NCBI RefSeq assembly: GCF_003261055.1
Contig: NZ_CP030073.1
Span: 6,882,001-6,946,000 of the forward strand
Direction of reading: 5' to 3'
Length of the DNA: 64,000 nucleotides
DNA from: Streptomyces cadmiisoli
GTDB taxonomy: Bacteria > Actinomycetota > Actinomycetes > Streptomycetales > Streptomycetaceae
Below, in pieces: positions 3,926 through 15,726 of the stretch. The notes under the pieces were generated by a model, which saw only the letters and a program-made list of their open reading frames with translations, was not told the DNA's origin and did not search any database. The position numbers and the translations under genes were made by a program. Position 1 is the stretch's first letter; every line of letters begins with the position of its first letter.

Positions 3926-5386
3926 TCAGGCGGGACCGGCATTGGTCGGCGGATGCGCCGGCCGCGCCGGAATCCGGGTGGCCCCGGTGGGCAGGGCCGG
4001 CAGCGCCGGATTCCGCAGCCAGGCCGCCAACAGGTCGTCCAGCGGCTGGTCGGTGAACCGGGCGGCGTGCGCGGCGAAGGTTTCGGTGCCGGCCGCCCCG
4101 CCCCGGTGCAGCCCCGCCCACCCGCGCAGCATGCGGAAGAACGCCTCGTCGCCCATCGCGCAGCGCACCGCGTGCAGGGTCAGCCCGCCGCGCTGGTAGA
4201 GGCGGTCGTCGAACATCAGCTTCCGGCCCGGGTCGGCGATCCGCAGGTTCTGCGGCTGCCCGGAGAGCAGACGGTGCGCCGCGGCGGCGTGCTGCGCCGC
4301 CGTACGGCCGCCCGACCGCTCCGACCACAGCCACTCGGCGTACTTGGCGAACCCCTCGTTCAGCCAGATGTGCCGCCAGTCCGCGATGGACACGCTGTTG
4401 CCGAACCACTGGTGCGCCAGCTCGTGCGCGATCAGCCGCTCCCAGCCCCGGGCACCGTCCACGTGATTGGCGCCGAACACCGACATGCCCTGCGCCTCGA
4501 CGGGGACGTCCAGCTCCTCCTCGGTCACCACGACCGCGTACTCGTCGAAGGGATACGGCCCGAACAGCTCCTGGAACAGGTCCATCATGGCGGGCTGCCG
4601 CGCGAAGTCCCGGGAGAACTCCGGCAGCAGATGCGCCGGAATGTGCCCGTGCTGCGGCACCCCGCCCGGCCCCGGGTCCCCGAGCAGCACCGTCTGGTAC
4701 TTCCCGATGGACAGCCCCACCAGGTAACTGGACGTCGGCGCCGGCTGCTCGTACACCCAGGTCGTGGTGGAGGCCTTCGTCGTCCGGGTCAGCAGCCGCC
4801 CGCCCGAGACCACCGAGTACGCGGACGGCGTGGTCACCGAGATCTGGTACGACGCCTTGTCGGCGGGCCGGTCGTTGCACGGGTACCAGGACGGCGCCCC
4901 GACCGGCTGGCTCGCCACCAGCGCCCCGTCCGCCAGTTCCTCCCAGCCCAGTCCGCCCCACGGGCTGTTCACCGGCCTGGGATTGCCCGACCAGTGCACC
5001 TCGACGGTGAACGCTGCCCCGGCCCGCAGCGGCTTCGCCGGGCGGATCCGCAGCCGCCCGCCCCGGTGCGTGTAGTGCGGCTGCCGTCCGTCCACCCGCA
5101 CCCGGCCGATCTTGAAGTCGGCCAGGTTGAGCTGGAACTCGCCGAGCGGCGCCCGGCCGGCTATGGCGTTGATCCGGGCCGTCCCCGCGAGCCGGTTCGG
5201 ACCCGGACGGTAGTCCAGCGCGAGTTCGTAGCGGTGCACCCGGTAGCGGGCGTCGCCGTTGGCCGGGAAGTACGGGTCCGCACCCACGGACTGCTGAACT
5301 GCCACTGCTGCGTCTGCTCCCTGCGCTGTGCTCGTACGGCGCCCCTGCCCGCCCGGCGCCGCAGGAGCCTCCTCTAGCGGCGCCAT
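3926..5386 (-). CDS. M1 family metallopeptidase, translationally coupled to the upstream NRPS
   Basis: The 486-residue protein has an N-terminal beta domain (about 45-235) and a thermolysin-like catalytic domain with HELAH at 321-325 and WLNEGFAKYAEW, giving zinc ligands H321, H325 and E344 and base E322. The usual substrate-recognition GxMEN motif is replaced by EAQGMS (297-302). The C-terminal helical domain of large aminopeptidases N is absent, as in short actinobacterial M1 enzymes. No signal peptide is evident. Its ATG (5384-5386) lies inside the last codons of the NRPS gene, whose stop is at 5374-5376, so the two are probably translated together. M1-type enzymes that degrade epsilon-polylysine are known in producers, so a related role here is plausible but unproven. 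Confidence 0.9.
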   Translation of the reverse strand: MAPLEEAPAAPGGQGRRTSTAQGADAAVAVQQSVGADPYFPANGDARYRVHRYELALDYRPGPNRLAGTARINAIAGRAPLGEFQLNLADFKIGRVRVDGRQPHYTHRGGRLRIRPAKPLRAGAAFTVEVHWSGNPRPVNSPWGGLGWEELADGALVASQPVGAPSWYPCNDRPADKASYQISVTTPSAYSVVSGGRLLTRTTKASTTTWVYEQPAPTSSYLVGLSIGKYQTVLLGDPGPGGVPQHGHIPAHLLPEFSRDFARQPAMMDLFQELFGPYPFDEYAVVVTEEELDVPVEAQGMSVFGANHVDGARGWERLIAHELAHQWFGNSVSIADWRHIWLNEGFAKYAEWLWSERSGGRTAAQHAAAAHRLLSGQPQNLRIADPGRKLMFDDRLYQRGGLTLHAVRCAMGDEAFFRMLRGWAGLHRGGAAGTETFAAHAARFTDQPLDDLLAAWLRNPALPALPTGATRIPARPAHPPTNAGPA

Positions 5387-8300
5387 GCCTCGATCGGGTT
5401 GCCCAGCCAGCGGGTGTCGTCGGGAACGGACTCCGCCGCCATCACCAGCGACGCGGGACCCAGCGTGGTGCGCTTCCCCACGGTGCTGCCGGGCAGGACG
5501 ATTCCGCCAGGACCCAGCGTCGCGCCCTCACGGATGACCACAGTATCCGTCCGCAAGATCCGGTCGTGGAAGAGGTGCGTCTGGAGCACACAGCCCCGGT
5601 TCACCCCGACCGCGTCCTCCAGGGTCACCAGGTCGGCCTCCGGCAGCCAGTAGCTCTCGATCCACACACCCTTGCCGATCCTTGCCCCGAGCCCGCGCAG
5701 CCAGACGTTCGTCACCGGTGTGCCCAGCACCGCGCCGGCCAGCCACGGCACCGCCAGCACCTCCACGAACGTGTCCGCCAGCTCGTTGCGCCACACGAAA
5801 CCGCTCCACAGCGGATGCTCACCGCTGCGGTGCCGCCCCACGAGCGCCCACTTCGCCAGCACGGACACCAGCCCCGCCGCGGCGCCCGCCGCCAGCAGCA
5901 CGAACCCGCCCAGCAGCCAGGCCAGGTCACCCAGCGCGCACAGAGCGGCCACGGTCAGCACGGCGAGCCCGGCCGAGCAGAACACCGGCACGATCCGGCA
6001 CAGCTCCACCAGCCCGCGCGCCCACAGCAGCCGCGCCGGCGGGTCGAACGTCCGGCTCCGGTCGCCGTCGGAGGCGCTGCGCGGCAGCTTCACCGGCGGC
6101 AGCCCCAGGTACGAGCTGCCCTTCTTCGCCTTCTTCGGCGTCGCCGACAGCACCCCGACCAGACCGCCGTCCGGCACGCTCCGGCCCGGCGCGGTCATGC
6201 CCGAGTTGCCGAGGAAGGCGCGCCGCCCGATCTCCGCCCGCCCGATACGCATCCATCCGCCGCCCAGCTCGTACGGCGCGGTCAGGGTGTCGTCCGCGAG
6301 GAACGCGCCGTCGCCGACCGTGGTCAGGCTCGGCAGCGCGAGGACGGTGGAGACCTCGGCGCCCTTGCCGATCCGCATCCCGAGCAGCCGCAGCCACACC
6401 GGCGTGACCAGCCCGGCGTACAGCGGGAACAGCGTGTCCCGGGAGCGGTCCATCAGCTGCGTGACGGTCCACACCTGCCAGCCGACCCTGCTGTGCGTGG
6501 GATGCGTGCCCTCGCGCAGCCCGAGGCTCAGCAGCCGCACACCGGCCAGGATCAGCAGCGCGTACACCAGCCCGAAGGCGAGCGTCCCCGGCACCAGCGC
6601 CGCCGCGGCCCCCCGCAGGGCCTCGCCGAGCCCGGCGCCCGGCGCGACGAACAGCCCCGCCACCAGCAGCGCGGCCCCGCCCGAGACCAGCGGCAGCGCG
6701 CCCAGCGCGACACCCGTCACCCCGTACATGAACCGCCAGTACGTGCCGCGCGCCGGCCGCTGCTCGGGCCAGTTGCGCTTGGCCTTGCCCAGCTTGACCG
6801 CGGGCGCGCCCGCCCACCGCTGCCCGGTCGGAACCTGTCCGGCGACGGCCGAGCCGGGCGCCACCTCGGCCCGCTTGCCGACCCGGGCGCCCGGGAAGAG
6901 CATGCTGCGCGTACCGACGACGGCGTGCGCGCCGACCTTCACCGACCCGATCTCCAGCCGGTCCCCGTCCAGCCAGTACCCCGACAGATCGACCTCGGAC
7001 TCCACCGCCGCGCCCCGGCCCAGCTTGAGCAGTCCGGTGACCGGCGGCAGCGAGTGCAGATCCACCTCGGGCCCGACCTTGGCACCCAGCGCCCGCGCGT
7101 ACCGCTCCAGCCAGGACCCGGTCAGCGAGGTCGCCCCGGCGGCCTCCGCCAGCCGCTCCGCGGCCCACAGCCGCAGATGAACGCCGCCGCCCCGCGGATA
7201 CCGGCCCGGACGGACCCCGCGCAGCAGCAGCCGGGCCCCGCCCGCGCCGATCGCGAGCCGTCCGGGCGGGCTGAAGAACAGCACCGCCCCGGCTCCGACC
7301 AGCCACCAGGAGGCCGTCGGCAGCCAGGAGTAGCCGCCCAGCAGATTGCCGAGCGCGGTCAGCACCACCGTCCAGCGCAGCCCGAGCAACGTGAACAGCG
7401 GGACGAGCAGCAGCAACTGAAGGGCCTGCGCACGCCGCGGAACCGGTGTCACGAAGCGGGTCGCCCCGTCCTCCTGAACGGACTCCTCCAGCCGGCGGGC
7501 CAGCTTGCGCAGCGTGGGCTGCTGGTAGATGTCGAGTACGGCGGCACTCGGATAGCGGGTGCGCAGCCGCGTGGTCAGCTGGGCGGCGGCCAGGCTGCCG
7601 CCGCCGATCGCGAAGAAGTCGTCGGAGGCCGCGGAGACCGGAATGCCGAGGACCTCGGTCCACTGCTCGGCCAGCCAGGCCTCGGTGCCGTACAACTGCT
7701 CCGCCCTGCCACCGGTCTCCAGCCCCTGAAGGGGCCACGGCAGCGCGTTCCGGTCGACCTTGCCGGACGTGCGCGTCGGCAGGTCGTCCACCGGCGCGAG
7801 CAGCGGCACCAGTGCCGCGGGCAGCTCGGCGCGCAGTCTCCGCACGGCCTTGGCCGCGTCCCATCCGTCCTGGGTGACGACATAGCCGACGAGCAGCTGG
7901 TTGCCGCTGCGCGCGGTCCGCACGGCCGCCGCGGCGCCCGCGACACCGGGCAGCGACTGGAGGGCCGCGTCCACCTCGCCGAGTTCGATCCGCCGCCCGC
8001 CGAGCTTGATCTGCTCGTCGGCCCGCCCGAGGAAGACCAGCCCCTCGGGCTCGGCCCGCACCAGGTCACCGCTGCGGTACGCCCGCTCCCAGCCCAGCGA
8101 CGGCAGCGGCGCGTACTTCTCCGCGTCCTTCTCGGCATCCAGATACCGCGCGAGCCCGACCCCGCCGATCACCAGCTGCCCGCTGCCGCCCATCGGCACG
8201 GGCTCCCCGGCCTCGTCGACGACGGCCAGCTCCCAGCCCCGCAGCGGCAGCCCGATCCGCACCGGCTCCTCGCCGCCCATCAGCGACGCACAGGCCACCA

Positions 8301-9240
8301 CGGTCGCCTCGGTCGGCCCGTAGGTGTTCCAGACCTCGCGCCCCTCGGTCACCAGCCGCTGCGCCAGCTCGGGCGGACAGGCCTCACCGCCGAAGATCAG
8401 CAGACGTACGTCGTTGAGGGTCTCCGGCTCCCAGAGCGCGGCCAGCGTCGGCACCGTCGACACGACGGTGATCTCCTGCTCCACCAGCCACGGTCCGAGA
8501 TCCGCGCCGCTGCGCACCTGCGACCGGGGCACGGGCACCAGACAGGCCCCGTACCGCCACGCCAGCCACATCTCCTCGCACGACGCGTCGAACGCGACGG
8601 ACAGTCCCGCCATCACCCGGTCCCCGGGCCCGATCGGGTCGTCCACCAGGAACAGGGCGGCCTCGGCGTCCACGAACGCGGCGGCGCTGCGATGGCTCAC
8701 GGCCACGCCCTTGGGTCTGCCGGTCGAGCCGGAGGTGAAGATGATCCACGCGTCGTGCCCGGCCGTCGGGCGGGCGGCGGGCACGTCACCGCGGGAAAGG
8801 ACGGTCAGCTGGTGCCCCGCGCCCACCACGGCCCGCACCCCGGCCTCCGCGAACACCAGCTCGGCCCGTTCGTCCGGGTCCTCGGCGTCCACCGGCACAT
8901 AGGCGGCCCCGGCGGCCAGTACGGCGAGGATCGCCACGTAGAGGTCGTTGGTCCCGGACGGGACCCGCACCCCCACCCGGTCCCCGAGCCCCACCCCGGC
9001 ACCGGAGAGTCGCCGGCGCAGCCGCTCCACCTCGGCGGCCAGCGCGCGATAGGTCAGACGCGCGGTGCCGTCGTCGAGGGCGAGCTCCTCCGGGTGGGCC
9101 CGTACGGACGCGTCGAGGACGTCGACGAGCGTGCGGGGAGAGGCCGCAGATCCTCCGGAGAATCGGGCGGTGTCACCGAACCGCTCGCGGATCTCTTCGT
9201 CGAGCAGGCCGAGAGCACTGCTCTCGTGTATGGCTGCCAT
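5374..9240 (-). CDS. Pls/PosA-like membrane NRPS (adenylation-thiolation-membrane acyltransferase-like)
   Basis: The 1288-residue protein has the architecture of epsilon-poly-L-lysine synthetase (Pls, about 1.3 kb-residues from memory). An adenylation domain spans about 40-500, with IIFTSGSTGRPKG at 166-178, NTYGPTEATV at 305-314, YRSGDLV at 388-394 and RTSGKVDRN at 490-498. A thiolation domain follows with the phosphopantetheine serine in GGGSL (S549). Then come hydrophobic segments from about 605 onward interleaved with three left-handed beta-helix, hexapeptide-type soluble regions. The pocket residues read D218 A219 E222 S261 I282 G284 T306 V314 V315 K494, a lysine-type code. There is no condensation or thioesterase domain. 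The product is probably a homopolymer of a diamino acid, possibly silent. The gene is first in a two-gene unit with the M1 peptidase. Confidence 0.9.
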   Translation of the reverse strand: MAAIHESSALGLLDEEIRERFGDTARFSGGSAASPRTLVDVLDASVRAHPEELALDDGTARLTYRALAAEVERLRRRLSGAGVGLGDRVGVRVPSGTNDLYVAILAVLAAGAAYVPVDAEDPDERAELVFAEAGVRAVVGAGHQLTVLSRGDVPAARPTAGHDAWIIFTSGSTGRPKGVAVSHRSAAAFVDAEAALFLVDDPIGPGDRVMAGLSVAFDASCEEMWLAWRYGACLVPVPRSQVRSGADLGPWLVEQEITVVSTVPTLAALWEPETLNDVRLLIFGGEACPPELAQRLVTEGREVWNTYGPTEATVVACASLMGGEEPVRIGLPLRGWELAVVDEAGEPVPMGGSGQLVIGGVGLARYLDAEKDAEKYAPLPSLGWERAYRSGDLVRAEPEGLVFLGRADEQIKLGGRRIELGEVDAALQSLPGVAGAAAAVRTARSGNQLLVGYVVTQDGWDAAKAVRRLRAELPAALVPLLAPVDDLPTRTSGKVDRNALPWPLQGLETGGRAEQLYGTEAWLAEQWTEVLGIPVSAASDDFFAIGGGSLAAAQLTTRLRTRYPSAAVLDIYQQPTLRKLARRLEESVQEDGATRFVTPVPRRAQALQLLLLVPLFTLLGLRWTVVLTALGNLLGGYSWLPTASWWLVGAGAVLFFSPPGRLAIGAGGARLLLRGVRPGRYPRGGGVHLRLWAAERLAEAAGATSLTGSWLERYARALGAKVGPEVDLHSLPPVTGLLKLGRGAAVESEVDLSGYWLDGDRLEIGSVKVGAHAVVGTRSMLFPGARVGKRAEVAPGSAVAGQVPTGQRWAGAPAVKLGKAKRNWPEQRPARGTYWRFMYGVTGVALGALPLVSGGAALLVAGLFVAPGAGLGEALRGAAAALVPGTLAFGLVYALLILAGVRLLSLGLREGTHPTHSRVGWQVWTVTQLMDRSRDTLFPLYAGLVTPVWLRLLGMRIGKGAEVSTVLALPSLTTVGDGAFLADDTLTAPYELGGGWMRIGRAEIGRRAFLGNSGMTAPGRSVPDGGLVGVLSATPKKAKKGSSYLGLPPVKLPRSASDGDRSRTFDPPARLLWARGLVELCRIVPVFCSAGLAVLTVAALCALGDLAWLLGGFVLLAAGAAAGLVSVLAKWALVGRHRSGEHPLWSGFVWRNELADTFVEVLAVPWLAGAVLGTPVTNVWLRGLGARIGKGVWIESYWLPEADLVTLEDAVGVNRGCVLQTHLFHDRILRTDTVVIREGATLGPGGIVLPGSTVGKRTTLGPASLVMAAESVPDDTRWLGNPIEAWRR

Positions 9241-9523
9241 CGGTCCTCGCGTCTCGAGCCCGGAAGCCTCCGGGGCGCTGGCGGGCCCGCAGGTCTGCCT
9301 GGGGTTGTCCGGCTCCAGCTCCGTAACAAGCCGGAAATTTTAGTACGACGCTAGATTCGTCGGCGGATCGCGGCCACTCGGGAGGGCTGTCGGAGGGACC
9401 CGTGGCCGGGTGGGCACACCCCGTGACCTCGTGTCCTCGCACCGGGCGAGAGATGCCCCACACGGCGGCCCGAACGTCCCCGGGCAAAGCAAAAGACCCC
9501 TGGTGAACAGGGGTCTCAGCCGG
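9241..9523. other. intergenic region upstream of the NRPS gene and downstream of tRNA-Leu
   Basis: This 283-bp gap must contain the promoter of the NRPS/M1 unit (minus strand). A TAAAAT-like hexamer lies in the A+T-rich patch near 9335-9345, but no convincing -35 is evident. The remainder is occupied by the tRNA terminator at 9486-9516. No protein gene is seen. Confidence 0.4.
9486..9516 (-). terminator. rho-independent terminator of tRNA-Leu
   Basis: An 8-bp stem (9494-9501 with 9509-9516, 7-nt loop) is followed on the minus strand by TTTGCTTT (9493-9486). It lies 7 nt beyond the tRNA 3' end, a classical intrinsic terminator. Confidence 0.85.
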
Positions 9524-9608
9524 TGTCCGAGGGGGGACTTGAACCCCCACGCCCGATAAAGGGCACTAGCACCTCAAGCTAGCGCGTCTGCCATTCCGCC
9601 ACCCGGAC
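9524..9608 (-). tRNA. tRNA-Leu (anticodon GAG)
   Basis: Read on the minus strand, the 85-nt sequence folds as a class II tRNA. The 7-bp acceptor stem GTCCGGG pairs with CTCGGAC, with discriminator A at 9524. The anticodon stem CTAGC/GCTAG encloses the loop TTGAGGT (anticodon GAG). A long variable arm and a T arm GGGGG-TTCAAGT-CCCCC follow. The 3' CCA is not encoded (CCG follows). It decodes CUC/CUU leucine codons; CUC is very common in this genome. Confidence 0.97.
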
Positions 9609-9803
9609 AAGGTGTCTGTCGCGCTGGGTTTCCCCCGCGGCGACGACGTAAACATTACCAGGCTTTCGGGGGTGGCCGATCACACCCCGTGCCGTCGCGC
9701 CCCCGTGAACGCCCCGTGACGGACCGGGACCGCCCTTGGGGCAGGACCTGCCTCGGGGGGAGGATGTGAGGGACCACCAGCGGCGACTGCGGGAGGAAAC
9801 AGC

Positions 9804-11129
9804 GTGAGCCAGACGGGCACGACCGAAGGCGTCACCGGCCAGGACGAGGTCGTCGACCTCTGCCGCGAGCTGATCCGGATCGACACCAGCAACTACGGCG
9901 ACCACTCGGGTCCTGGCGAGCGCAAGGCGGCCGAGTACGTCGCCGAGAAGCTCGCCGAGGTGGGCCTCGAACCGCAGATCTTCGAATCCCACCAGGGTCG
10001 TGCCTCCACCGTGGCCCGTATCGAGGGCGAGGACCCCACCCGGCCCGCGCTGCTCATCCACGGCCACCTCGACGTCGTACCGGCGAACGCGGCCGACTGG
10101 ACCCACCACCCCTTCTCCGGCGAGGTCGCCGACGGATGCGTGTGGGGCCGCGGCGCCGTCGACATGAAGGACATGGACGCGATGACGCTCGCGGTCGTCC
10201 GCGACCGGCTGCGCACCGGCCGCAAGCCCCCGCGCGACATCGTGCTGGCCTTCCTCGCCGACGAGGAGGCGGGCGGGACCTGGGGCGCGCGCCACCTGGT
10301 CGACCGGCACCCCGAGCTGTTCGAGGGCGTGACCGAGGCCATCGGCGAGGTCGGCGGCTTCTCCTTCACCGTCAACGAGAAGCTGCGGCTCTACCTGGTG
10401 GAGACCGCCCAGAAGGGCATGCACTGGATGCGGCTCACCGTCGACGGCACCGCCGGCCACGGCTCGATGACCAACGACGACAACGCCATCACCGAACTGT
10501 GCGAGGCCGTCGGACGGCTCGGCCGGCACACCTGGCCGGTGCGGGTCACCAAGACCGTGCGGTCCTTCCTCGACGAGCTGTCGGACGCGCTGGGCACCGA
10601 GCTCGACCCGGAGAACATGGACGAGACGCTCGCCAAGCTGGGCGGTATCGCCAAGATGGTCGGCGCCACCCTGCGCAACTCGGCCGCGCCCACCATGCTC
10701 GGCGCCGGATACAAGGTCAACGTCATCCCGGGCCAGGCGACCGCCCATGTCGACGGACGGTTCCTGCCCGGCTACGAGGAGGAGTTCCTCGCCGACCTCG
10801 ACCGCATCCTCGGCCCGCGCGTGCGCCGTGAGGACGTGCACGGCGACAAGGCCCTGGAGACCGACTTCGACGGCAAGCTCGTCGACGCCATGCAGAGCGC
10901 GCTGAGCGCCGAGGACCCGATCGCGCGGGCCGTGCCGTACATGCTCTCCGGTGGCACCGACGCCAAGTCCTTCGACGACCTGGGCATCCGCTGCTTCGGC
11001 TTCGCCCCGCTCCAGCTGCCGCCGGAACTGGACTTCGCCGGCATGTTCCACGGTGTCGACGAGCGAGTGCCGGTCGACGGCCTGAAGTTCGGGGTGCGGG
11101 TGCTCGACCGTTTCATCGACGCGTCCTGA
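9804..11129 (+). CDS. M20 family metallopeptidase (dipeptidase/deacylase)
   Basis: The 441-residue protein belongs to the M20/ArgE/DapE/CPG2 family of di-zinc hydrolases. Metal and catalytic positions are visible: H88 and D90 in HGHLDVVP, D120 in WGRGAVDMKD, and E154/E155 in LADEEAGG. A dimerisation (lid) domain runs from about 185 to 330 and contains MHWMRLTVDGTAGHGSM. A late metal histidine is in AGMFHGVDERVP. The GTG start is supported by GGGAGGAA five bases upstream. It is monocistronic, just past the tRNA gene and before the chaplins. The substrate (peptide, acyl amino acid or carbamate) is not determinable. Confidence 0.92.
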   Translation: MSQTGTTEGVTGQDEVVDLCRELIRIDTSNYGDHSGPGERKAAEYVAEKLAEVGLEPQIFESHQGRASTVARIEGEDPTRPALLIHGHLDVVPANAADWTHHPFSGEVADGCVWGRGAVDMKDMDAMTLAVVRDRLRTGRKPPRDIVLAFLADEEAGGTWGARHLVDRHPELFEGVTEAIGEVGGFSFTVNEKLRLYLVETAQKGMHWMRLTVDGTAGHGSMTNDDNAITELCEAVGRLGRHTWPVRVTKTVRSFLDELSDALGTELDPENMDETLAKLGGIAKMVGATLRNSAAPTMLGAGYKVNVIPGQATAHVDGRFLPGYEEEFLADLDRILGPRVRREDVHGDKALETDFDGKLVDAMQSALSAEDPIARAVPYMLSGGTDAKSFDDLGIRCFGFAPLQLPPELDFAGMFHGVDERVPVDGLKFGVRVLDRFIDAS

Positions 11130-11285
11130 ATTGGCCTGGTTGAACGACACTTCAGAATTCGCCTGCGCGTGCGGGGTCGACTGAGACGGGTGAATGCGCT
11201 CATCAGGTCGTAGCTAAATCGGCTCTCCTCAGTTGTAGGTGATGTGATCCGCTGCTTGGGGTCGCATTGCCAACAAGGAGGAATA

Positions 11286-11519
11286 ATGATCAAGAAGGTC
11301 GTCGCTGCTGCGGCTGCTACCGGTGGTCTGGTTCTCGCGGGCGCGGGCCTCGCCGTCGCGGACTCCGGTGCTCAGGGTGCGGCCGTGCACTCCCCGGGTG
11401 TCGTTTCCGGCAACGTCGTTCAGGTGCCGGTGCACATCCCGGTGAACGCCTGCGGCAACACCATCTCGGTTATCGGGCTGCTGAACCCCGCCTTCGGCAA
11501 CTACTGCGTCAACAAGTGA
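11286..11519 (+). CDS. chpH: short chaplin ChpH
   Basis: The 77-residue precursor has a signal peptide (1-25, ending AVA) and a single chaplin domain with the paired cysteines C56 and C74 and the signatures [23 protein letters not shown] and LLNPAFGN. Chaplins assemble into amyloid-like rodlets that make aerial hyphae and spores hydrophobic. ChpH is one of the short chaplins that is itself surface active. The ATG is preceded by an excellent AAGGAGG at 11275-11281; the open frame extends further upstream but without family similarity. Chaplins are normally controlled by the ECF sigma factor BldN. I could not place its promoter with confidence in the 156-bp upstream gap. Confidence 0.97.
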
Positions 11520-11547
11520 CGCTGCCTTTCTGAGGTTCGTCCACGCC

Positions 11548-11586
11548 GTCGGTCCCGGAGCGCACGCCATGCGCTCCGGGACCGAC
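11548..11586 (+). terminator. hairpin terminator between chpH and chpC
   Basis: A perfect 17-bp stem (11548-11564 with 11570-11586) with a 5-nt loop (cgcca) begins 29 bp after the chpH stop. It implies that chpC has its own promoter or depends on read-through. Confidence 0.8.
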
Positions 11587-11631
11587 CGGTCTCTCCACGT
11601 AGTTTCCGAGGGTGAAGGCAGAGATTCAGCA

Positions 11632-12510
11632 ATGCGACAGGTCACCCGCAAGGGTCTGATGACCGTGGCGGCCGCGACCGGCGTGATCGCCGCCGCGGGC
11701 GCCCAGGCCGCCCACGCCGACTCCGGCGCGTACGGCTCCAGTTCGCGCTCGCCGGGCGTGCTGTCCGGCAACACCGTGCAAGCACCCGTGCACGTTCCGG
11801 TCAACATCTGCGGCAACACCGTCAACGTCGTCGGGGTGCTCAACCCCGCGGTCGGCAACTCCTGCGCCAACGACGGAGGCGGGAAGCAGGCGGGCGGCGC
11901 GCAGGCGGGCGGGCACGCCACGGGTTCGCCCGGCGTCGGCTCGGGCAACCACGTCCAGGTGCCGGTCCACGTACCGGTCAACGCGTGCGGCAACACCGTC
12001 ACCGTGATCGGTCTCGGCAACGCGGCCGTGGGCAACGAGTGCGCGAACGACAGCTCCGGCGACGGCACGACGCCGCCTGGGAATCCGGGAAATCCGGGAG
12101 AGCCGGGTAATCCGGGGGAGCCCGGTAACCCGGGGGAGCCGGGTAATCCGGGGGAGCCGGGTAATCCGGGGGAGCCCGGTAACCCGGGAGAGCCGGGTAA
12201 TCCGGGGGAGCCCGGGAATCCGGGAGAGCCGGGTAATCCGGGGGAGCCCGGGAATCCGGGAGAGCCCGGAAATCCCGGAGAGCCGGGTAATCCCGGGGAG
12301 CCCGGTAACCCGGGCAACCCGCCCACCTCGGGTGAGAACCCGGACGACGACGGCTCGACCGGGTCCAACCAGCCCGGCGGCCAGTCCGGCGGCAGCGGTG
12401 CGCTCGCGGAGACCGGCAGCGAGCTGCCGCTCGGCGCCGCCGCGTCGCTGGGCCTCGGAGCACTCGCGGCCGGCGCGGTCCTGTACCGCAGGGCGCGCGC
12501 GTCGGCGTAA
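11632..12510 (+). CDS. chpC: long, sortase-anchored chaplin ChpC with collagen-like linker
   Basis: The 292-residue precursor has a signal peptide (1-29). Two chaplin domains follow (about 30-80 with C60/C78; about 97-140 with C119/C137). Next comes a collagen-like linker of 12 GEP-containing hexads (about 150-232) and a Ser/Gly-rich spacer. The C-terminal sortase signal has LAETG at 258-262, a hydrophobic helix and the tail RRARASA. Long chaplins are attached to peptidoglycan by class E sortases and nucleate the rodlet layer made by the short chaplins. The ATG at 11632 gives a normal signal peptide; its Shine-Dalgarno is weak. Known ChpC proteins have a repeat-poor linker as far as I recall, so the length of this one is unusual. 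Confidence 0.93.
12079..12320 (+). repeat. 18-bp tandem repeat encoding Gly-Asn-Pro-Gly-Glu-Pro
   Basis: About 13 copies of an 18-bp unit, resembling ccgggtaatccgggggag with synonymous variation, encode (GNPGEP)n inside chpC. Differences are almost all at third positions, so the amino-acid pattern is kept. Every third residue is Gly and every third is Pro, the collagen pattern. The array should be prone to slippage and copy-number change. Confidence 0.95.
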
Positions 12511-12523
12511 CGGCGCGCGGAAA

Positions 12524-12557
12524 CGGAGCGGGTCCTGCCGCGGCGGGGCCCGCTCCG
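12524..12557 (+). terminator. hairpin downstream of chpC
   Basis: A 9-bp stem (12524-12532 with 12549-12557) starts 14 bp after the chpC stop codon. It lies between chpC and the convergent small gene ending at 12579. Confidence 0.65.
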
Positions 12558-12578
12558 CCCTGAGTGCGGTGCCTCAGC

Positions 12579-12767
12579 TCACCACGTGGCGCGTACCTGG
12601 CGGATGATCCGCCTCCGCAGCCGCACTCTGCGGCTGCCGTCACGCAGCAGGCTCAGGCGGTGCAACTCCCAGTGTCCGTACTCGGCGTGGTCGGTCAGCA
12701 GGCGTGCGGTGTCCTTGCGGGAGACCCCGCGAGGTACGTACACGTCGACAAATTCGTATTCCGGCAT
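12579..12767 (-). CDS. DUF5703 family small basic protein
   Basis: The 62-residue protein begins MPEYEFVDVYVPRGVSR and ends in an arginine-rich tail (RRVRLRRRIIRQVRATW), which suggests nucleic-acid or membrane-surface binding. It matches the small conserved Streptomyces family next to chpC as I remember it. Function is unknown. It is convergent with chpC and divergent from the gene at 12815, with only 47 bp between the two start codons. Confidence 0.8.
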   Translation of the reverse strand: MPEYEFVDVYVPRGVSRKDTARLLTDHAEYGHWELHRLSLLRDGSRRVRLRRRIIRQVRATW

Positions 12768-12814
12768 CGCATCTATTGTGCGGGCACGGGCCGGGTACGG
12801 ATAGCGTCTGCACT

Positions 12815-13528
12815 ATGTCTGATGCTGCGCAGCCCACCGCTGCCGAGGTACGCGCCGCCGCCGAGGCGGTCAAGACCGCGCTCGACCGCCATCTGGCCGC
12901 GGTCGAACGCCGGTCGGGGGATGACGACCCGGCTGTCTACGAGGCGTTCAACGAGCTGGCCGCGGCCGCGGAAGCGTACGACGAGCTGCTCTACGACCGT
13001 TACGACGAGGTCACCCCCTTCGAGATTCCCGGCGCCGAGGACGCCCTGCCGTACACGGGTCCCGAGGAACCGAACGCGCTCAGTGTGCTGATCCGCCGCG
13101 ACTACGCGGTCGCGGAGCCCCAGCGGTTGATCGCGCAGGCACAGCGGATCGAGGCGGCGGACGACGACGGCACGGACACCGAGGCCGGCAGCACGGTCCA
13201 CGGGGCGCTGGGCGTCCTGTTCGGCGAGTTCGAACCGGACGAGATCGCCTCCCGCCACAAGGAGTTCGGGCTGGAGGAGGGCGACTCCACGCTGTGGGTC
13301 ACGGCCGCGGACGACCCGGCCGACCCCGGAGAGTGGCTCGAGGCGCCGTTCGAGGGTGTCGACCCGCAGCGCGTGGTCTGCCGCTTCGACGTCAGCGCGG
13401 TCTTCGACGACGAACCCGACGACGACATCGGGGACGACCTCGCCGACGAGGAGGAGACCGAGGAGCTCGACGACGGGCTGGAGCTCGACGAGGACGAGGA
13501 CCTGGAACCGCTGGACGCCGAGCGCTGA
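12815..13528 (+). CDS. conserved hypothetical protein with highly acidic C terminus
   Basis: The 237-residue protein has a helical N-terminal region (5-65) with AAAEAVKTALDRHLAAVERRSG and ELAAAAEAYDELLYDRYDEV. A central conserved region (70-170) includes LSVLIRRDYAVAEPQRL and HGALGVLFGEFEPDEIASRHKEFG. The last 45 residues are almost entirely Asp/Glu. No enzyme motif was recognised and no signal peptide or membrane segment is present. A TAGCGT hexamer (12802-12807) ends 7 nt before the ATG and there is no Shine-Dalgarno, so the mRNA is probably leaderless. Confidence 0.85.
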   Translation: MSDAAQPTAAEVRAAAEAVKTALDRHLAAVERRSGDDDPAVYEAFNELAAAAEAYDELLYDRYDEVTPFEIPGAEDALPYTGPEEPNALSVLIRRDYAVAEPQRLIAQAQRIEAADDDGTDTEAGSTVHGALGVLFGEFEPDEIASRHKEFGLEEGDSTLWVTAADDPADPGEWLEAPFEGVDPQRVVCRFDVSAVFDDEPDDDIGDDLADEEETEELDDGLELDEDEDLEPLDAER

Positions 13529-13545
13529 CCGGCGGCACCGGCAAG

Positions 13546-13586
13546 GACAGCGGCGGCCCCGGACATCCCGGTGGCCGCCGCTTGTC
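13546..13586. terminator. hairpin between convergent genes
   Basis: A stem of 9 perfect pairs (13550-13558 with 13573-13581), extendable with one bulge, lies between the convergent genes ending at 13528 (+) and 13615 (-). Confidence 0.55.
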
Positions 13587-13614
13587 ATGACACGACCGCG
13601 GACGCGGCCCCGGC

Positions 13615-15726
13615 TCAGCCGGCCGCGGTCTCCTGCGCGGTCAGCAGCAGGGGCAGCCTGGTCGTCCGGGGCTTCGCCGCGACCTCCGCGACGGCCCGGG
13701 GCAGGGCCTGCTCCACACCGTGCACCACGGAAAGATGCCGCTCCGCCCGCCCGAAGGCCGTGTACACCCAGGGCCGGCTCAGGGCCTGGGCGGCATCGCC
13801 CGGGAGCACCACGACGACAGCCGGCCAGCGGCCGCCCACCGCCTGGTGCGCGGTCAGTGCCCATCCGTGCCGGACGCACTGCTCGACCTGCTCCTTCGGC
13901 ACGACGACGGGGGCACCGGCGCAGGTCAGACGCAGCCCCTCGGCGTCGGCTCCGACGACCTGGCCCGGCACCGTACGCCCCGGGGCCGGGGAGTAGGCGA
14001 TCCGGTCTCCTGGGTCGAATCCGCCGAACCGCCCGGGGCCGGGGTTGAGCCGTTCCTTCAGCGCGGCGTTCAGCGCGCGTGTGCCGGCCGCACCGCCGTG
14101 GCCCGGTGTGACGACCACGGTCTGCTCGGCGGGCACTCCGATGGCCCGCGGCACCGAGTCCGCGACGAGCTGCACGGTCCGGTGCACGGCCTCGCCCGCG
14201 TCCCGCACCGGGACGATCACGACCTCCTTGTCGGAGGCGTTGACCTGGAGCAGTTCGCCCGCGCCGACGCCGGACACCAGCTCGCCCAGGGGACCCGGGT
14301 CCGGCCGCCGCGAGGCGACCTGGGGACATCTGCGGGCCGCGAGCAGGTCCGCGAACACCCGCCCCGGTCCCACGGACCACAGCACCGAAGGATCACCGGC
14401 CAGCACCAGCCGGGCGCCGTCCGGCAGCGACTCGGTGAGCAGGGCGGCGGTCTCCACGTCGAGCTGGGGCGCGTCGAGGACGACGAGGAGATCGAGGTCC
14501 AGTGCGCCCTCCCGGTCACGGCCGGGCCCCTCGGCGCCGGACAGCAGACCGGTGACGGTGGCGATCCCCGAGTCGTCCCGCACCAGAGCCGAGAGCCGCT
14601 GCCGCCCGAGGGGGCCGTGCGTGGCGGCCCAGACGCGCAGCCCCATGCCGCGCGCCGCGTCCACCAGCACCGCGGCCTCGGCCCGGGACGCCTCTCCACC
14701 GGTGTGCAGCACCAGCCCGTGACCGGCCACGGCGCGGATCAGCTCGGCGGCCGACCCCCCGGCGGCCGTGGCGGCCCGCTCCCACTCCTCGGCCGGACCG
14801 TCCTCCTTGGGCACCGAGTTGATCAACCGGGCCAGACCGTCGGCGAGGCTCTCCTCCGCGAGGGCGTACCGCTCCAGTCCGACGAGCACACGCACCGGGC
14901 GCTCTTCGTCTTCCTCGCCCTCCTCGCCGTCCTCCCTCTCGTCCGGCTCCTCCAGGCCGTCCTGGAAAGCCAGCGCGTCGCCCTCCGCGAGGGCGCTCTG
15001 CACGGCCGCGTCCGGATCGGGCACCGCCCGCTGGGCCAGGGCGGCGACCAGTGCCGGCATCTCCAGGGCGGTGTGCCCGGCGAGCGCCGCCTGCTCCAGC
15101 AGCCAGACCGTCACGGCCCGGCCGCGCCGGTCGTCGTCCGGCCCGGACTCGGCGCCCAGCAGCGCGCGGGCGAACCCGTCCGCTTGCTCGGGCCGCACTC
15201 CGGCGACCCGGAGCAACTGCCACGGATCGGAGCGCAGCAGGTCGTCGGCGCCCTCGCCGAGCGCCGCCGCGGCCTGCGCCGCGAGTGTCTCGGGGGCGCC
15301 GCCTTCGCCCAGCACCAGTCCGACCGCCGCCACCAGCTGCGCCTCGGGCGCCGCCGGGGAGCTGTCGGCGAGCGGCTGCTGCCGCCGCACCGGCTCCGGC
15401 GCGGGCCGCCGGGGCGGCGGCTCCTCGAAGACGGTGGCGGCGGGCTTCGCGCCGCTCTCCACGGCCCGGACGGCGGCCAGCAGGTCGGCGGCCGTCCCGC
15501 TGAGCTTGCCCCCGGCCTCCACGGGCCCCGCCCTCTCCGCCTTGCGCCGCTCGATGCGCTCCCGCTCGATCCGCTGAGCCGCCAACTCGGCCGCGGCCTC
15601 CGACACATCGGCGCCCTGGGTCTCGGCGCCCCGGGTCTCCGGCTCGCCGCCCCCGGTGCTCTCGGGCTCGCCGGCCCCGGTGGTCTCGGGCTCGCCGCCG
15701 TCGGTGGACTCCGGCTCCGTGCTCAC
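13615..15726 (-). CDS. helix-hairpin-helix protein related to RecD2 helicases, with degenerate ATPase motifs
   Basis: The 703-residue protein has a low-complexity Glu/Gly/Thr-rich N terminus (1-40), a charged helix (45-66) and a helix-hairpin-helix-like region (about 155-190). A RecD-like two-lobed core covers about 320-690. Motif III is clear (LAGDPSVLWSVGPG, 442-455), and motifs V and VI are recognisable (GWALTAHQAVGG, 621-632; YTAFGRAERHL, 655-665). The P-loop is replaced by HTGGEASRAE (341-350) with no GKT, and the Walker B/DEAD position reads VVLDAP (415-420) instead of DE. It is therefore unlikely to hydrolyse ATP. The GTG start at 15726 overlaps the TGA of the aldo/keto reductase gene upstream (GTGA), indicating coupling. 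Confidence 0.8.
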   Translation of the reverse strand: MSTEPESTDGGEPETTGAGEPESTGGGEPETRGAETQGADVSEAAAELAAQRIERERIERRKAERAGPVEAGGKLSGTAADLLAAVRAVESGAKPAATVFEEPPPRRPAPEPVRRQQPLADSSPAAPEAQLVAAVGLVLGEGGAPETLAAQAAAALGEGADDLLRSDPWQLLRVAGVRPEQADGFARALLGAESGPDDDRRGRAVTVWLLEQAALAGHTALEMPALVAALAQRAVPDPDAAVQSALAEGDALAFQDGLEEPDEREDGEEGEEDEERPVRVLVGLERYALAEESLADGLARLINSVPKEDGPAEEWERAATAAGGSAAELIRAVAGHGLVLHTGGEASRAEAAVLVDAARGMGLRVWAATHGPLGRQRLSALVRDDSGIATVTGLLSGAEGPGRDREGALDLDLLVVLDAPQLDVETAALLTESLPDGARLVLAGDPSVLWSVGPGRVFADLLAARRCPQVASRRPDPGPLGELVSGVGAGELLQVNASDKEVVIVPVRDAGEAVHRTVQLVADSVPRAIGVPAEQTVVVTPGHGGAAGTRALNAALKERLNPGPGRFGGFDPGDRIAYSPAPGRTVPGQVVGADAEGLRLTCAGAPVVVPKEQVEQCVRHGWALTAHQAVGGRWPAVVVVLPGDAAQALSRPWVYTAFGRAERHLSVVHGVEQALPRAVAEVAAKPRTTRLPLLLTAQETAAG

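What the first reader, a model, noticed from the sequence alone, without database searches (positions are those of the whole stretch)
5374..9240. Pls-like membrane NRPS with a lysine-type specificity code
The protein has the architecture of epsilon-poly-L-lysine synthetase: adenylation, thiolation, then membrane helices with tandem hexapeptide-type domains and no condensation or thioesterase domain. Mapping the adenylation pocket onto PheA positions gives D-A-E-S-I-G-T-V-V-K. As I recall, the lysine code of bacitracin synthetase differs at only two positions (S for T and C for V). The Glu at the third position is a hallmark of basic diamino acids. The window may therefore encode a cationic homopoly(amino acid), an often overlooked product class.
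Basis: partly seen in the sequence, partly recalled or inferred. Interest (0 to 1): 0.75.

Follow-up and report, generated by a model that had tools for sequence, protein, structure and literature searches.

The report
Polylysine synthetase beside its degrading enzyme

Summary
Window 5374-9240 (-) encodes a 1288-aa A-T-membrane protein whose C-terminal 678 residues match NCBIfam TIGR02353 (Pls/PosA family) over the whole model, 848 bits against a cut-off of 423. The adenylation code DAESIGTVVK is correctly placed and identical to that of the crystallised Streptomyces albulus epsilon-poly-L-lysine synthetase (7wew; 68% A-domain identity). An M1 gene follows in 100 of 101 Lys-code loci L009-L109 and in none of 22 other Pls-type loci. 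Best reading: epsilon-poly-L-lysine synthetase. Poly-beta-lysine is unlikely; no lysine 2,3-aminomutase was found. The protein lies in a clade apart from the S. albulus type; 48 of 150 genomes of its genus have a match of at least 79% identity. No assay exists for this copy. New member of a known kind, low interest. More unusual is a split Pls-type polymerase cluster with diaminopropionate genes elsewhere in the same genome.

The parts
5374..9240 (-). pls-like gene: 1288-aa epsilon-poly-L-lysine synthetase homologue (A-T-membrane polymerisation domain)
   Evidence: TIGR02353 848 bits; A-domain code identical to 7wew; 57.5% identity over residues 30-1288 to P0270, an S. albulus-type Pls whose A domain is 99.4% identical to 7wew
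7726..9153 (-). adenylation domain, residues 30-505; pocket residues D218 A219 E222 S261 I282 G284 T306 V314 V315 K494
7489..7677 (-). carrier (thiolation) domain, residues 522-584, motif GGGSL
   Evidence: Pfam PP-binding 522-584, E 1.1e-10; motif
5392..7425 (-). TIGR02353 membrane polymerisation domain, residues 606-1283, with the invariant motif Q1220-x-H1222-xxx-D1226 in its last repeat
   Evidence: motif invariant in 38 of 38 aligned rows, two of them this genome's other polymerases
3926..5386 (-). pldII-like M1 metallopeptidase, 486 aa, HELAH at 321-325; its ATG lies 13 nt inside the 3' end of the synthetase gene
   Evidence: Pfam Peptidase_M1 3e-24; motif; overlap; conserved adjacency
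9330..9346 (-). conserved upstream element GTACTAAAATTTCCGGC, perhaps part of the pls promoter region
   Evidence: seen in a 25-row upstream alignment; within 3 mismatches upstream of 43 of 67 loci whose best match is at least 75% identical (24 lack it) and of 0 of 34 more distant loci; 0 of 1000 random window pieces; one exact copy in the genome, plus two with 3 mismatches. Promoter role is inference.

Best explanation
[quoted passage not shown] The A domain activates L-lysine with ATP and loads it on the carrier domain. The membrane-embedded C-terminal domain then joins lysines iteratively, alpha-carboxyl to epsilon-amino, giving a short polycation outside the cell. The overlapping downstream gene encodes PldII, an M1 aminopeptidase that degrades the polymer and probably protects the producer. 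Shown here: domain architecture, code identity to 7wew, gene overlap and conserved adjacency, conserved candidate catalytic residues. Inferred from the characterised family: lysine activation, isopeptide linkage, export, chain length of tens of residues, self-protection.
For: Full TIGR02353 match. The ten-residue code is identical to 7wew and in all 117 aligned rows (rows chosen by similarity, many close kin). A published comparison links Ala at code position 2 with Lys, Met with Orn, Phe with Dap/Dab (PMC10522769, passages); the window has Ala. An M1 gene follows on the same strand in 100 of 100 loci L009-L108, also beside the broken copy L112, but not beside L109. S. albulus and Corynebacterium variabile pls are reported in one operon with the peptidase, and the C. 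variabile enzyme (51% to S. albulus Pls) made epsilon-PL in S. coelicolor (PMC8117764, Results section). pldII is reported as translationally coupled to pls (PMC9223678, passages). No lysine 2,3-aminomutase found in the genome.
Against: No direct assay. The window clade is not the S. albulus clade, and none of the listings showed me a paper that ties a product to a member of the window clade; Pls proteins of Kitasatospora setae and K. aureofaciens are mentioned in print but I could not place them. One Lys-code locus, L109, has no M1 neighbour. Codes can mislead: PosA's nearest code was a Lys domain, yet it prefers ornithine. Reports on PldII disagree: one review passage says loss of Pld and PldII changed neither yield nor chain length (PMC8506220), another paper found longer chains and lower tolerance on repression (PMC9223678).
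Confidence: 0.88

Rival explanations
1. It makes another diamino-acid homopolymer (ornithine, Dab, Dap) with the same type of enzyme.
For: The family includes PosA (Orn), PDAB and PDAP synthetases with the same architecture.
Against: Code position 2 is Ala, reported with Lys; PosA has Met, PDAP/PDAB Phe. All ten letters equal 7wew. L140, an A-T-C relative whose motif reads D-F-E, has no M1 homologue within its stretch. The other three synthetases are reported in other gene contexts.
Confidence: 0.05
2. It makes epsilon-poly-beta-lysine, as reported for a synthetase beside a lysine 2,3-aminomutase.
For: Such a polymer is reported (PMC10522769 introduction passage and reference list).
Against: TIGR00238 finds no lysine 2,3-aminomutase in this genome at E<=0.001, while 9 of 14 control genomes give a match.
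Confidence: 0.02
3. The enzyme is as described, but the locus is silent or the product is degraded at once, so the strain accumulates no polymer (a rival about expression, not exclusive of the best explanation).
For: C. variabile made none detected, and its gene gave the polymer only when expressed from the S. albulus pls promoter in S. coelicolor; in S. albulus accumulation starts after acidification to about pH 4 while PldII prefers neutral pH.
Against: ORFs and upstream element are conserved in many relatives, which suggests use.
Confidence: 0.4

Closest known systems
[quoted passage not shown]
   Same: Same domain order, same ten-residue code, same TIGR02353 domain; M1 (PldII) gene next to it as reported
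   Different: 67.8% identity to 7wew in the A domain, 53.3% to P0270 in the C-terminal domain; separate clade; 1288 rather than 1319 aa
PldII, M1 epsilon-PL-degrading enzyme of S. albulus
   Same: Metallopeptidase gene directly after, and overlapping, pls
   Different: Activity not tested; no S. albulus PldII sequence was identified as such, so no direct identity is given
Corynebacterium variabile Pls
   Same: Architecture and pls-peptidase operon (PMC8117764 Results)
   Different: Sequence not compared here
PosA, delta-poly-L-ornithine synthetase of Acinetobacter baumannii
   Same: Family and architecture
   Different: Code DMEHNGTVSK and no cotranscribed neighbour as reported

Membership tests
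Pls/PosA family (TIGR02353) | Full-length C-terminal polymerisation domain above the curated cut-off | tested here: met
   848 bits vs 423.1, model 1-695/695
Pls/PosA family (TIGR02353) | A and T domains in front, no C or TE domain | tested here: met
epsilon-poly-L-lysine synthetase (Pls) | Lys-type adenylation code as in characterised Pls | tested here: met
   DAESIGTVVK identical to 7wew
epsilon-poly-L-lysine synthetase (Pls) | Six transmembrane helices around three tandem hexapeptide-like domains | tested here: inconclusive
   Hydropathy peaks and weak hexapeptide hits agree; the structure prediction was never accepted
epsilon-poly-L-lysine synthetase (Pls) | Operon with the M1 peptidase gene pldII | tested here: met
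   3926-5386, 13-nt overlap; M1 next to 100 of 101 Lys-code loci L009-L109
epsilon-poly-L-lysine synthetase (Pls) | Activates L-lysine and forms an isopeptide polymer | not testable with these tools
   needs an enzyme assay
epsilon-poly-beta-lysine synthetase | Lysine 2,3-aminomutase supplying beta-lysine | tested here: not met
   no match to TIGR00238 in the genome at E<=0.001
PldII (M1 epsilon-PL-degrading enzyme) | M1 peptidase with HExxH, next to pls | tested here: met
PldII (M1 epsilon-PL-degrading enzyme) | Degrades epsilon-PL | not testable with these tools
   needs an enzyme assay

The most novel reading that the evidence does not exclude
The window enzyme stands for a second, slower-evolving and more widespread Pls lineage than the industrial S. 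albulus type. At least one genome (G146) carries both. It might make a lysine polymer of different length or role, under its own conserved upstream element, as a resident rather than an accessory function.
Probability: 0.15. Interest if true: 0.4.

Novelty: new member of a known kind. Interest (0 to 1): 0.2.

Why it matters
If right, the strain can probably make epsilon-poly-L-lysine, a food preservative, and roughly a third of the sampled genomes of its genus (48 of 150) hold a close relative of the synthetase. The distinct clade is a natural set for comparing chain length and expression with S. albulus. It does not change the picture of how such polymers are made.

Tried and rejected

Led nowhere: placing the Kitasatospora aureofaciens or K. 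setae Pls (not among the 120 rows shown); papers that assign a product to a window-clade enzyme. K. kifunensis, a reported producer, has a protein near each lineage (P0135, P0341), so it does not decide the question. The automatic code reading for the divergent L110 A domain was misaligned and is not used.

Rows dropped before counts: one search used 97 loci and left out L045, L061, L106, L109 and L112 because the best hit did not span the protein (and the own-genome NRPS loci); one search took the five back (102 loci, 13 listed proteins, window, 7wew = 117 rows). For L112, L045 and L061, which are broken or cut, only the one open stretch with the best hit was read. The M1 count covers L009-L108; L109 (no M1) and L112 (M1 present) are.

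Full report
WHAT IS THERE. Window 5374-9240 (-) is a 1288-aa ORF with codon-position G+C of 0.757/0.538/0.93, typical of a real gene in such DNA. Pfam finds an adenylation domain, its C-terminal subdomain, a carrier domain and a hexapeptide repeat; no condensation or thioesterase family reached E 0.01. NCBIfam TIGR02353, 'Pls/PosA family non-ribosomal peptide synthetase', matches residues 606-1283 over the whole model with twice the cut-off score. The best PDB sequence match is 7wew, the epsilon-poly-L-lysine synthase A domain (E 6.7e-197). The genome has no name here; that its genus is Streptomyces is inferred from the named homologues.

THE CODE. 7wew_A has the same ten letters at 67.8% identity in the A domain. 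In a wider alignment all 117 rows (window, 7wew, 102 loci, 13 listed proteins) share it. The rows are not independent and were picked by similarity. A published comparison assigns Ala at position 2 to lysine, Met to ornithine and Phe to Dap/Dab (PMC10522769, passages). A contrast within the genus, L140, is an A-T-C protein whose motif reads D-F-E instead.

THE NEIGHBOUR. The ATG of the next gene (3926-5386, -) lies 13 nt inside the end of the synthetase gene. It encodes an M1 metallopeptidase with HELAH. [quoted passage not shown] PMC9223678 (passages) states that pldII is translationally coupled to pls and concludes that it serves self-protection; a review passage reports that inactivating Pld and PldII had no effect on production or chain length (PMC8506220), so its role is not settled. 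In 100 of 100 loci L009-L108 an M1 homologue lies downstream on the same strand, its first aligned residue -142 to +166 nt from the end of the synthetase gene, median 20. The exception is L109, a Lys-code locus with no M1 homologue found and an M20 peptidase on the other strand. Of 22 stretches with other Pls-type polymerases (L121-L140, L110, L111) none has an M1 homologue downstream; one, L121, has a 33% M1 homologue upstream. So the M1 neighbour goes with the Lys code.

DISTRIBUTION AND DESCENT. 56 of 150 genomes of the genus, own genome included, have a match at E<=1e-200. By my reading of that table 48 are at least 79% identical (one of these is cut at a contig end, one split over two contigs, one broken), eight have only matches of 55-68%, and one of the 48 (G146) has a second, 57% match. 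On a tree of the C-terminal domain (51 rows, quick IQ-TREE, SH-aLRT support) the window falls in a 16-row Streptomycetaceae clade (support 100) with Kitasatospora and Actinacidiphila. The S. albulus-type Pls (P0270) and S. roseoverticillatus (P0240) lie in a 10-row group (support 100) on a branch of 0.68. 17 of the 48 inner branches are open, so the deeper order is unsure. Upstream, GTACTAAAATTTCCGGC is found within three mismatches in 43 of 67 loci of at least 75% identity, is missing in the other 24, and in all 34 more distant loci; the genome has one exact copy and two with three mismatches, against one for the reversed control pattern.

MECHANISM. Lysine is adenylated, loaded on the carrier and polymerised by the membrane domain. 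In the 38-row alignment Q1220, H1222 and D1226 in the last repeat are invariant, also in two polymerases only 26-27% identical, which makes them candidate catalytic or structural residues; this is inference. Export and degradation by the M1 protein follow from the published S. albulus system. Beta-lysine as substrate is unlikely, since no lysine 2,3-aminomutase was found.

JUDGEMENT. But it is a common, named family with a known product and known partner gene. Lacking an assay on this clade, the product remains a strong prediction (0.88).

SIDE FINDING. The same genome holds two more TIGR02353 proteins without an A domain. L110 has a carrier-polymerase gene followed by A-T, TauD-like, SbnB and SbnA genes, i.e. 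a diaminopropionate setting. In 61 genomes of the genus 49 places exceed the TIGR02353 cut-off (34 genomes), and 21 of these lie in open frames of 812-1002 aa, too short for an added A domain. I looked at all 21, L110 and L111 included: 19 have an A-T homologue beside them, 18 a TauD homologue, 17 SbnB; SbnA is on the same strand in 14 and on the other strand in four (L123 is cut short). L110 supplied the queries and counts among these. The published PDAP synthetase is one protein (4,338-bp ORF, PMC4668381, passages). A comb-like Dap polymer has been reported from a Streptomyces (title in the reference list read); that this split cluster makes it is a guess. One paper search on such a cluster returned nothing and one search listed nothing I recognised as describing it; both searched open-licence papers only.

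Noticed in passing
L110 (own genome, G000:C1:8095000-8112000): 5683-8226, 8223-10907, 10966-12000, 11994-13067, 13121-14143 (+): Split Pls-type system: carrier + TIGR02353 membrane polymerase without A domain, then an A-T protein, a TauD-like oxygenase, SbnB and SbnA (2,3-diaminopropionate synthesis). An A-T homologue lies beside 19 of 21 stand-alone polymerases examined, this one included. Possible source of a Dap polymer, perhaps the comb-like one.
   Followed up: partly
L111 (own genome, G000:C1:8285000-8303000): 7346-10249 (+): Third TIGR02353 protein, with two near-identical tandem carrier domains and no A-T homologue in the 18-kb stretch; a GMC oxidoreductase lies downstream.
   Followed up: partly
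   Followed up: partly
L100 and L101 (G146): One genome with both Pls lineages, each followed by an M1 gene.
   Followed up: partly
L112 (G140): A window-clade pls that matches in two overlapping pieces, one with an inner stop, while an M1 homologue beside it stays open.
   Followed up: no
window 9522-9608 and 9804-11129: tRNA-Leu(gag) lies upstream of pls, and an M20-family peptidase gene points away from it.
   Followed up: no
window 11569-12510 (+): Protein with two chaplin-like segments, a long GNPGEP repeat and an LAETG-like C-terminus, probably anchored to the cell surface (seen; names recalled, not analysed).
   Followed up: no
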